NCBI GenBank assembly: GCA_027013285.1
Contig: JALUXR010000075.1
Location: forward strand, 1-36,187
Source of the DNA: Candidatus Altimarinota bacterium
Lineage (GTDB): Bacteria > Patescibacteriota > Gracilibacteria > Absconditabacterales > Absconditicoccaceae
Reading direction: 5' to 3'
DNA: 36,187 nucleotides
The position numbers were made by a program, and so were the translations under genes. Shown one piece after another: positions 15,082-28,404 of the stretch (the stretch's first letter is position 1; every line of letters begins with the position of its first letter). Under the pieces are notes generated by a model. It was not told where the DNA came from and searched no databases. It was given only the letters and a program-made list of their open reading frames with translations.

Positions 15082-16092
15082 ATGTCTTTCAAAGAAAATT
15101 ATATAGATCCAAATGGTTGAGAAAAAATAGAAGTTAAAAAACTTTCGTCAGTAGAAAGAAAGAAATATTTAAAGAAATGGACAAAATGAACTAAGGCAGT
15201 ATTGCTTTCTACACTTCTTGCAGCTTCGACAAGTTCTGCAGAAGATATAGATATTTCAAAACTTCCACATTATACTAAGAATTTTTTTTCTAAAGCTTGA
15301 GATTATATAAAAAAACATACTCATGTTTCATACGATAGAACAGCTACAGACTGGAATGATCATTATGATACAGATTATTATTATAGATATAATACAAATG
15401 TTCAAAATTTAGATAATACTAATTTAGAAGGGATAACTAATTTAAATCCGACTTGATGAGTTGTGTATTCTGATTGACAAAAAATGTCTTTAGTTTCAGC
15501 TTCTAATATTATTGAAAATGAAAGTTTTTTAAAAGAGAATGATTTAGATGAAGTTATAATAAGGATAAATTGAACACCTTTCAAAGCTAAACCTAAGTTT
15601 TTGAAATTAAATTTTCAAGCAAGTGGTAGAAAATGAATAGTTGGTTATGAAATTGGAAAAACTATTACTTTGGTCTATGTTTCTTATTTAGATAAAATTA
15701 AAGTTTTATGAACTATAGATAATTATGCTTGATACATAGAGGAAAATAATCCAAGAGAATATGAAGTTTTATCTTGAGTTGAAAATAAAAAAAGGTTGTA
15801 TAAAAAAATATCTTCTTTACTGTGATGTCATAATTGTAGATACAAAAAAGATAGTTCTTGAAATATATATTTTTATTCAAATTGAAGAAATGTTTGAACT
15901 TTAAATAATATGTGAAATGAAAAAATATTAACAAGATGAAATAAAGTTTTAGCAAAAATTATTCAACATTGAGATAATATGATTATGACAGATAGTTTTT
16001 GAAATATCCTTTATAAATCAAATGGACAAAAAGTTCTTGATATAAAATTACCAACGGCTGATGAAAGAATAGTTTTAAGTGTGCAAAATTAG
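15082..16092 (+). CDS. Secreted protein of unknown function, paired with the SLT/LysM gene
   Basis: 336 aa and not recognised. The N-terminus has a long basic region up to about residue 39, then a hydrophobic stretch AVLLSTLLAASTSSA and a possible signal peptidase site before EDIDIS. The mature part is rich in Tyr, Asn and Asp with beta-type spacing, and has one CxxC (CHNC, about residue 250). The last ~70 residues contain short repeating turns (NGRNVGTLNN, NMIMTDSFGN). The 2-nt gap to the LysM protein implies co-translation, so a cell-wall-linked role is plausible but not shown. Confidence 0.75.
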
Positions 16093-16122
16093 ATAAAACA
16101 TTATTTTTTTTTGTGAAAAGTC

Positions 16123-16150
16123 TTGATAATTACTTTAAAATATATATAAG
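16123..16150 (+). promoter_or_regulatory. Predicted promoter of the 26-aa ORF
   Basis: TTGATA, a 16-nt spacer, then TATAAG, about 44 nt before the ATG. The 11 bases AAAAGTCTTGA across the -35 are identical to those at the HU promoter. Confidence 0.5.
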
Positions 16151-16193
16151 TTTCTTCCTCTTGAATTAAGAGAGAAAAATTAAAGGAGAAGGA

Positions 16194-16274
16194 ATGAGAT
16201 TAGCATTGTTTGTTCCATTAGCTGTAGTTATAGTAGCTATTGGAGTTGTTAAAAAATTTGTACCTATTAAATAG
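16194..16274 (+). CDS. 26-residue single-pass membrane peptide with a strong Shine-Dalgarno
   Basis: Too short for the ORF track. MRLALF, a hydrophobic run of about 16 residues, then VKKFVPIK: one membrane helix with positive ends. The start is supported by AAAGGAGAAGGA-ATG, a canonical Shine-Dalgarno at proper spacing, whereas almost no other gene here has one. It is bracketed by its own predicted promoter and a strong terminator, so it looks like a small monocistronic transcript of about 160 nt. It contains no TGA codon; its single Gly is GGA. Function is unknown; possibilities are a membrane-complex subunit, a stress peptide or a toxin-like peptide. Confidence 0.65.
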   Translation: MRLALFVPLAVVIVAIGVVKKFVPIK

Positions 16275-16289
16275 GTATAAATATATTTT

Positions 16290-16315
16290 AAAGGCCGTTG
16301 TTTACGGTCTTTTTC
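16290..16315 (+). terminator. Rho-independent terminator after the 26-aa ORF
   Basis: AAAGGCCGT and ACGGTCTTT pair over 9 bp (one G-U) around a TGTTT loop, running straight into a T-rich tail. This is one of the few GC-rich stems in the window. Confidence 0.85.
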
Positions 16316-16405
16316 TTGATATAAATAATCTGATTAAATTTAGATTGTTATTTTATATAAATTTTTTATTATAAATATCAGTTTTATATTGGTTATTTTT
16401 TAATT

Positions 16406-17293
16406 ATGATACATTTACATGGACATAGTCATTATAGTATGCTTCAAGCTATATGAGATACAAAAGCTATAGCAAACAAAGCTAAAGAATTAAATCAACA
16501 AGCTATAGCTATTACAGATACAAATGCTGGTTATGGATTTTTAGAATTTTATGAAAAAACTGATTGAATTAAACCAATCTTGGGTGTAGATTTAATTTTT
16601 TCTTATGATGGTAAAAATATGATGAATATAGTTTTATTATCAAAAACTTATGAAGGTTATCAAAATATGATACAATTAATTTCTATAGCAAATACTGTGA
16701 ATATGGTAGATGTTCCATTTATAACTATGGATGATTTGAAAAAATATAGTAAATGACTTATCTGACTTTCGTGATGAAATTGAGAAATAGAAAAACTTAT
16801 CGTATGATGAGAAAAAGACAATCTTATTTTAGAAAAAATTCAAGAATATGAAGATTTATTTGAATGAGAGTTTTACTTAGAATTTCTTACTTATGATTAT
16901 AATTTATTTGAAGAAAGGCAAAAAATAGAGAAAAAATTGATACAATTTATAGAAAATAATAAAAAGAAGGCTGTGATTACATCAAATTATAAATATTTAA
17001 ATAAAGAGGATAGAGATACTTATGATGTCTTGTTATGTATAAAAAATAATTGGAAATATTGAGAAGAAAATAGACCAAGAGTAAAATGATACAATCATAT
17101 TATGACTGAAGAAGAAGTTAGAGCAGTGTTAGAAAATAATTGATTATCAGGAGATTTACAAGATATTTTAATTTGAAATACTCATAAAATATCAGAAAGT
17201 ATAGATTGTAATATTCCATTACATCAATTACTTTTCCCAAAATATGAGGTTCCAGAAAAATATAGGAAATTATATGATAAAATGGAAAAATAA
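16406..17293 (+). CDS. Stand-alone PHP domain derived from DNA polymerase III alpha (DnaE)
   Basis: 295 aa matching only the N-terminal PHP domain of DnaE. HLHGHSHYSMLQAIGD corresponds to HLHVHSEYSLLDG. AIAITDTNAGYG, GIKPILGVDLIF, YEGYQNMIQLISIAN, KYSKGLIGLSGG, FYLEF, DTYDVLLCIKNN and NTHKISESI follow in family order. A full DnaE has over 1000 residues; a TAA ends this one before the polymerase palm begins. The TDHG metal-ligand motif is TDTN here, so the usual metal site is incomplete. A role in proofreading or as a separate polymerase subunit is speculative. A small membrane protein and relA follow. Confidence 0.85.
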
Positions 17294-27973: not shown

Positions 27974-28252
27974 TTATTCATTAACAGCTTTTTTAAATTC
28001 TGTACCAACTTTGAAACCAACAACATTTCTAGCAGGAATTTGAATTTTTTTACTAGTATCTTGTGGATTAACACCTTCTCTAGCTTCTCTATGAGATAAT
28101 TTATAAGTACCAAAACCTTGGATTCTTACTTCTTTATCTTCTTTAACACCTTCTGTTACAGTAGCTGTAAAAGTATTTACGAATTCACCAGCTAATTTTT
28201 TACTTACATCTAATTTTTCAGCAATTCTTGCTATTAATTCTGTTTTTGTCAT
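27974..28252 (-). CDS. hup: DNA-binding protein HU
   Basis: Small histone-like dimer that bends and compacts DNA. It is 92 aa, the standard length. MTKTELIARIAEKL is the helical dimer part; EVRIQGFGTYKLSHREAREGVNPQD and IQIPARNVVGFKVGTEFKKAVNE are the beta arm region and C-terminal helix, with the intercalating Pro in GVNPQD. All seven glycines are GGT and none is TGA, unlike neighbouring genes, which fits very high expression. It has its own promoter and a strong terminator, so it is monocistronic. Confidence 0.97.
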   Translation of the reverse strand: MTKTELIARIAEKLDVSKKLAGEFVNTFTATVTEGVKEDKEVRIQGFGTYKLSHREAREGVNPQDTSKKIQIPARNVVGFKVGTEFKKAVNE

Positions 28253-28307: not shown

Positions 28308-28335
28308 ACTATATAAAGTTTTTTAGCTATTTCAA
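28308..28335 (-). promoter_or_regulatory. Predicted HU promoter
   Basis: On the minus strand TTGAAA, a 16-nt spacer, then TATAGT, giving a 5' leader of roughly 50 nt. The leader holds a small AGCTG/CAGCT hairpin. The -35 is embedded in AAAAGTCTTGA, shared exactly with the 26-aa ORF promoter. Confidence 0.55.
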
Positions 28336-28404
28336 GACTTTTTTATAATAAAATTATTTTATAAAACATTACTTATTTACAGTGTTTTCCTAGTTTTTGT
28401 AAAA

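What the first reader, a model, noticed from the sequence alone, without database searches (positions are those of the whole stretch)
16093..16315. SD-led, promoter- and terminator-bracketed 26-aa membrane peptide gene
Almost no gene in the window has a Shine-Dalgarno, yet this tiny gene has AAGGAGAAGGA at ideal spacing, a promoter sharing AAAAGTCTTGA with HU, a 9-bp terminator and no TGA. These features suggest strong, specially regulated expression of a small membrane protein, or a dual-function small RNA.
Basis: partly seen in the sequence, partly recalled or inferred. Interest (0 to 1): 0.65.

Follow-up and report, generated by a model that had tools for sequence, protein, structure and literature searches.

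The report
SD-led micro-gene for membrane peptide
In a bacterium whose genes almost never carry the standard ribosome-docking signal, a tiny self-contained gene does carry it; the gene makes a 26-residue peptide that probably sits in the membrane, and the only close relative examined has a diverged copy at a different place with the same kind of signals and an identical terminator.

Summary
Window 16194-16274 (+) encodes MRLALFVPLAVVIVAIGVVKKFVPIK. It has its own promoter, the only Shine-Dalgarno (SD) among 25 genes in the window, and a 9-bp terminator. Genome-wide, none of 579 ORFs of 100 aa or more has AAGGAG upstream.

The only other genome held for the genus (Ca. Gracilibacteria S009_33) carries a homologue, MKKVKLLLVVPLAVYIVSTGITRDLLTKRV (42% identical). 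It keeps AAAGGAG-N5-ATG, a matching promoter (TTGATW-N16-TATAAGT), a hairpin over the stop codon, and an identical 21-nt terminator stretch that occurs once per genome. The copy lies between clpB and a DUF7897 gene. There the site matching the window's locus is empty, and the window genome has no copy at the clpB site. So this is a real, self-contained micro-gene with presence/absence turnover, not an artefact.

No homologue was found in 351 other genomes of the class or in phage, plasmid, Pfam, NCBIfam, PHROG or PADLOC libraries. A few other small genes share the SD, promoter and terminator layout. In 11 of 12 relatives from the same family the 16S anti-SD is eroded; the tail for this genus is unknown.

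Function is inferred: a single-pass membrane peptide, possibly toxin- or effector-like. An additional RNA role is not excluded. No expression data exist.

The parts
16123..16150 (+). promoter TTGATA-N16-TATAAG (-35 at 16123-16128, -10 at 16145-16150)
   Evidence: Read from the sequence. The same layout TTGATT-N16-TATAAG precedes the G001 homologue; HU has TTGAAA-N16-TATAGT.
16116..16126 (+). AAAAGTCTTGA, shared with the HU upstream region (28332-28342, -)
   Evidence: Only two exact matches in the window.
16158..16174 (+). small hairpin near the predicted 5' end of the transcript
   Evidence: -4.3 kcal/mol, z -0.28, weak. A hairpin sits at the same place in G001 with z -2.26.
16182..16193 (+). 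Shine-Dalgarno AAAGGAGAAGGA
   Evidence: -8.8 kcal/mol, unique among 25 window genes; G001 copy has AAAGGAG-N5-ATG.
16194..16274 (+). 26-aa ORF MRLALFVPLAVVIVAIGVVKKFVPIK, predicted single transmembrane helix
   Evidence: best 18-residue hydropathy mean 2.66; homologue in G001.
16256..16282 (+). hairpin spanning the stop codon
   Evidence: 12-bp stem. A hairpin of different sequence sits over the stop codon in G001.
16290..16319 (+). intrinsic terminator AAAGGCCGT-TGTTT-ACGGTCTTT plus T-rich tail
   Evidence: CCGTTGTTTACGGTCTTTTTC is identical in G001 and occurs once in each genome.
16095..16345 (.). segment absent from the same junction of G001; flanked by near-repeats AAAATTAGAT (16085-16094) and AAATTTAGAT (16336-16345)
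   Evidence: Alignment of the window with L043.
15082..16092 (+). upstream gene, left edge of the syntenic junction
16406..17293 (+). downstream DnaE-like N-terminal (PHP-type) gene, right edge of the syntenic junction

Best explanation
This is a real, monocistronic micro-gene of about 200 bp: sigma-70-type promoter, a leader of about 37 nt, an SD, a 26-30 codon ORF, a hairpin at the stop codon and an intrinsic terminator. It encodes a short cationic peptide predicted to span the membrane once. Unlike nearly all genes of this genome, its start is selected by SD pairing, which would let it be translated separately from the SD-less bulk of mRNAs. The gene behaves as an accessory unit: within one genus it sits at different places, each site lacking it in the other genome, and its peptide diverges fast while its expression signals stay. 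Shown here: anatomy, homologue, conserved signals, presence/absence at syntenic sites. Inferred: transcription, translation, membrane insertion. The most likely role, with low confidence (about 0.3), is a membrane-active accessory peptide of toxin or effector type rather than a housekeeping subunit.
For: Homologue with the same frame, AAAGGAG-N5-ATG and promoter layout, plus an identical 21-nt terminator found once per genome. In 257 Gb of genome contigs the 19-nt core hits this relative and only three unrelated genomes. SD unique in the window and absent from 579 large ORFs. Both transcripts fold better than all 200 shuffles. In 20,000 random starts, 0.27% gave an ORF of 24-34 aa with a comparably hydrophobic stretch (cut-off 2.3). 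Reciprocal absence at the two junctions, although the matched ends of the flanking proteins (DnaE-like 100 aa, ClpB 156 aa) score 93-98% identical within the genus. Three other SD-led small genes in the genome have the same layout.
Against: Only two sequences are known. Whole-ORF dN/dS is near 1 (0.49/0.48); only the 16-residue core shows constraint (0.34/0.79). The G001 peptide is less hydrophobic (2.13). There are no expression data. The 16S tail of this genus is missing, so SD recognition is inferred. HU, usually abundant, lacks an SD here, so SD does not simply mean high expression.
Confidence: 0.7

Rival explanations
1. Type I toxin: a small hydrophobic peptide whose mRNA is silenced by an antisense RNA.
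For: Size, single hydrophobic segment with cationic ends, patchy location and fast divergence fit; stable 3' structure.
Against: Short leader with an unpaired SD, whereas many type I toxin mRNAs hide the start site. No convincing promoter on the opposite strand within the cassette; the G001 scan shows weak opposite-strand candidates at chance level. The terminator hairpin has no T-run on the reverse strand. No PADLOC match.
Confidence: 0.18
2. Foreign gene recently acquired (phage, plasmid or another bacterium); the SD is a relic of a donor that uses SDs.
For: Genome otherwise lacks SDs; the gene is absent from the sister junction; many SD-led hits in the G001 bin look like foreign or contaminating DNA, including CRISPR-type genes.
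Against: AAAGGAG-N5-ATG is kept in two diverged copies. A syntenic 87-aa gene keeps AAAGGAGCATTTTATG exactly while its protein is 55% identical, which argues for a working SD. GC and promoter are native-like. No match in phage, plasmid or viral collections.
Confidence: 0.2
3. The product is mainly a small RNA: the conserved terminator and stop-codon hairpin act on targets and the peptide is secondary.
For: 21 identical nt at the terminator although the ORF diverged; strong 3' folding z-scores.
Against: Frame, SD and hydrophobic core are kept, and the core shows excess synonymous change. A leader built for translation is unexpected for a pure sRNA.
Confidence: 0.12
4. Chance ORF in an intergenic transcript.
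For: AT-rich sequence makes 24-34 aa ORFs common: 11.5% of random starts.
Against: Homologue with the same signals at an unrelated site; SD unique in the window.
Confidence: 0.03

Closest known systems
SD-led rpsU (bS21) in SD-ignoring Flavobacteriales (PMC9976891)
   Same: A gene with a strong SD in a lineage whose other genes do not use SDs, giving a separate translation route.
   Different: Not a ribosomal protein. There the anti-SD is intact but hidden by bS21/bS18/bS6; here the anti-SD is eroded in 11 of 12 family relatives. A tblastn with E. coli bS21 found no bS21 in the genome, which does not prove absence.
Type I toxin peptides (Fst, TxpA, Ibs, TisB, DinQ kinds; PMC8309996, PMC3567139)
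   Same: Short single-pass hydrophobic peptide with charged ends, own promoter and terminator, patchy distribution.
   Different: No antisense RNA signal, unhidden SD, no sequence relation.
Small regulatory membrane proteins such as AcrZ, MgrB, KdpF, CydX (from general knowledge)
   Same: Size and one transmembrane segment.
   Different: Those usually keep sequence and neighbourhood among close relatives; this one does not.
SD-scarce organisms lacking CCUCC, including Absconditabacteria SR1 (PMC10783764)
   Same: Related TGA-recoded lineage with an eroded anti-SD and few SD genes.
   Different: That work, as far as read here, describes the genome-level state and not a set of SD-led exceptions.

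Membership tests
Type I toxin-antitoxin | short hydrophobic toxin ORF | tested here: met
   26 and 30 aa; best 18-residue hydropathy 2.66 and 2.13.
Type I toxin-antitoxin | antisense RNA gene overlapping or adjacent | tested here: inconclusive
   No good opposite-strand promoter within the cassette; consensus scans only.
Type I toxin-antitoxin | toxicity on expression | not testable with these tools
   Needs an experiment.
SD-dependent gene in an SD-scarce genome | strong SD where other genes lack it | tested here: met
SD-dependent gene in an SD-scarce genome | anti-SD able to pair in this organism | tested here: inconclusive
   16S absent from both bins; relatives' tails are eroded but still pair with this SD at -3.3 to -8.3 kcal/mol.
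Known protein family (Pfam, NCBIfam, PHROGs, PADLOC, PDB) | profile or sequence match | tested here: not met
   Only a sub-threshold DUF4229 hit (E 0.042); otherwise none.
Known RNA family (Rfam) | covariance model match at the gathering score | tested here: not met
   Only one tRNA in the window.
Small membrane protein gene | conserved frame with a transmembrane segment in a relative | tested here: met
   based on two sequences.

The most novel reading that the evidence does not exclude
In this recoded, SD-scarce lineage a handful of fast-evolving, self-contained small genes, this peptide among them, form an SD-only class. They would be translated preferentially by a subset or state of ribosomes able to pair with an SD, or they are kept readable for the translation machinery of another bacterium (host or prey), with the peptide acting on membranes.
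Probability: 0.15. Interest if true: 0.85.

Novelty: new variant of a known kind. Interest (0 to 1): 0.5.

Why it matters
Small genes like this are easily missed in annotation, more so in recoded genomes. A lineage that has nearly given up SD signals but keeps them on a few small, fast-evolving genes is a natural test of what SD pairing is still for, and may point to peptides used in interactions between these presumed episymbionts and other bacteria.

Tried and rejected
Weak profile hits in the class: those examined are chance, e.g. G012, which is the start of a 224-aa secreted-type protein; many others lie inside long ORFs, and most were not opened individually. G297, a near-match to the terminator, lies inside a coding region that reads like radA. 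The other three exact terminator hits in genome contigs are unrelated organisms and were not followed up. A shared terminator loop as a class mark: TGTT(T) loops occur in a few other terminators, so not specific. SD-led genes of G001 as a large class: most are foreign-looking or lie inside ORFs. Bidirectional terminator: no T-run on the reverse strand. SD hidden by the upstream CU-rich stretch: partial complementarity, but the predicted transcript start would exclude half of it; not pursued. Viral scans by DNA and protein gave nothing. Own and sister 16S: not in the bins. No structure prediction: the peptide is below the 30-aa minimum.

Full report
What is there. The window lies in a 22.9% GC draft genome (G000, 830 kb, 103 contigs) that reads TGA as glycine: 73% of glycines in 24 window genes are TGA. 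At 16194-16274 (+) there is a 26-codon ORF. It has AAAGGAGAAGGA directly before the ATG, a promoter TTGATA-N16-TATAAG, a hairpin over the stop codon (16256-16282) and an intrinsic terminator (16290-16312). The whole predicted transcript folds better than all 200 shuffles (z -4.21), mostly because of the 3' end (z -6.07); the 5' hairpin is not significant here.

How unusual the SD is. Pairing energy to a canonical anti-SD is -8.8 kcal/mol here and -2.7 or weaker for the other 24 window genes. I read essentially all of G000 in stretches. Of 579 ORFs of at least 100 aa with full upstream sequence, none has AAGGAG at -20 to -4 and one has GGAG, against 8 in a control stretch further upstream. The few SD-led genes are small: this peptide, a 95-aa gene (L219 4113-4400), an 87-aa gene (L228 16250-16513) and a 68-aa gene (L181 6682-6888, -), each with its own TTGACT/TTGATA-type promoter and terminator, plus a 118-aa gene with AGGAG (L158 1330-1684, -). 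Among the four, the only TGA is one in the 68-aa gene; the peptide itself has a single glycine, so its lack of TGA says little.

The homologue. The only other genome held for the genus, G001, is WFMP01, Candidatus Gracilibacteria bacterium S009_33. It encodes MKKVKLLLVVPLAVYIVSTGITRDLLTKRV (L002 1103-1195, -), 42% identical over the alignment. It has AAAGGAG-N5-ATG, TTGATT-N16-TATAAG, a hairpin over the stop codon and the identical stretch CCGTTGTTTACGGTCTTTTTC. That stretch occurs once in each genome and not in the other 47 genomes of the family at up to 3 mismatches. In the class its 19-nt core occurs, at up to 1 mismatch, in one other genome, inside a coding region. The class-wide profile search gives E 3e-18 and 3e-14 for the two family members, which is by construction, and nothing credible elsewhere.

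Location. In G001 the upstream gene and the DnaE-like gene that flank the cassette in the window are adjacent, 62 bp apart, and the intergenic bases that remain are almost identical to the window's. The 251-bp difference in the window is flanked by near-repeats AAAATTAGAT and AAATTTAGAT (16085-16094, 16336-16345). That fits either insertion in G000 or repeat-mediated loss in G001. In G001 the homologue lies between clpB and a DUF7897 gene; in G000 that junction carries other small genes and no peptide. Matched parts of ClpB and DnaE score 93-98% identical within the genus; those tables score TGA as a mismatch, so real identities may be slightly higher. The 42% peptide identity is therefore far below the genome background: the two copies are either not direct orthologues or evolve very fast.

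Is it coding? Frame and hydrophobic character are kept. The 16-residue core has dN 0.34 and dS 0.79, but over the whole ORF the two are equal, so the support is moderate. A random start in sequence of this composition gives a 24-34 aa ORF in 11.5% of cases, and one with a best hydrophobic stretch of at least 2.3 in 0.27%. The G001 peptide falls just under that hydropathy cut-off (2.13).

Translation. Neither bin has a 16S gene. In 12 relatives of the family the 16S tail reads like GGACCACCTCTCTA, GACCACCACCCTA or GACCATTATCCTA; 11 of 12 lack CCTCC. Eroded anti-SDs are already reported for related Absconditabacteria (PMC10783764). The peptide's SD would still pair with such tails at -3.3 to -8.3 kcal/mol. 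The syntenic 87-aa gene keeps AAAGGAGCATTTTATG exactly while its protein is 55% identical and the leader before the SD has diverged. This argues that the SD works in this lineage. A precedent for SD-led exceptions is rpsU in Flavobacteriales (PMC9976891).

Most likely working. Transcription starts near 16157 and ends at the terminator, giving an RNA of about 155 nt; the two 3' hairpins should protect it; SD pairing selects the start; the peptide inserts into the membrane. All of this is inference from anatomy. A toxin- or effector-like role is suggested by the turnover and fast divergence, with low confidence.

Noticed in passing
L134-L145 (16S 3' ends of 12 family relatives): The anti-SD of 16S rRNA is eroded in 11 of 12 relatives (e.g. 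GGACCACCTCTCTA, GACCATTATCCTA), in line with the lack of SDs in G000.
   Followed up: partly
L219:4113-4400, L228:16250-16513, L181:6682-6888(-), L158:1330-1684(-) in G000; L110 in G001: A handful of other SD-led small genes without known family; the first three and L110 have their own strong promoter and terminator. The 87-aa one is syntenic in G001 with an identical SD region but only 55% protein identity.
   Followed up: partly
L103:359-391 and 983-1015 (G000 C55): The 3' end of clpB is duplicated (33 bp, 97% identical) around a 624-bp insert carrying a 127-aa gene on the opposite strand: a possible insertion hotspot at a gene end.
   Followed up: no
window 16406-17293 and L043:913-1800(-): The DnaE-like N-terminal gene is only 295 aa in both genomes of the genus, while relatives outside the family match within ORFs of about 1,200 aa.
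   Followed up: no
window 27974-28252: HU uses GGT for all seven glycines and no TGA, although TGA makes up 73% of glycine codons in the window: possible avoidance of the reassigned codon in highly expressed genes.
   Followed up: partly
L112, L114, L121, L123, L124, L129, L131 (G001): Several SD-led, TGA-free genes in the G001 bin (WXG100-type, a likely CopG/ribbon-helix-helix-type protein, a CRISPR-type gene, a Cas4/RecB-type nuclease) look like contaminating or foreign contigs.
   Followed up: partly
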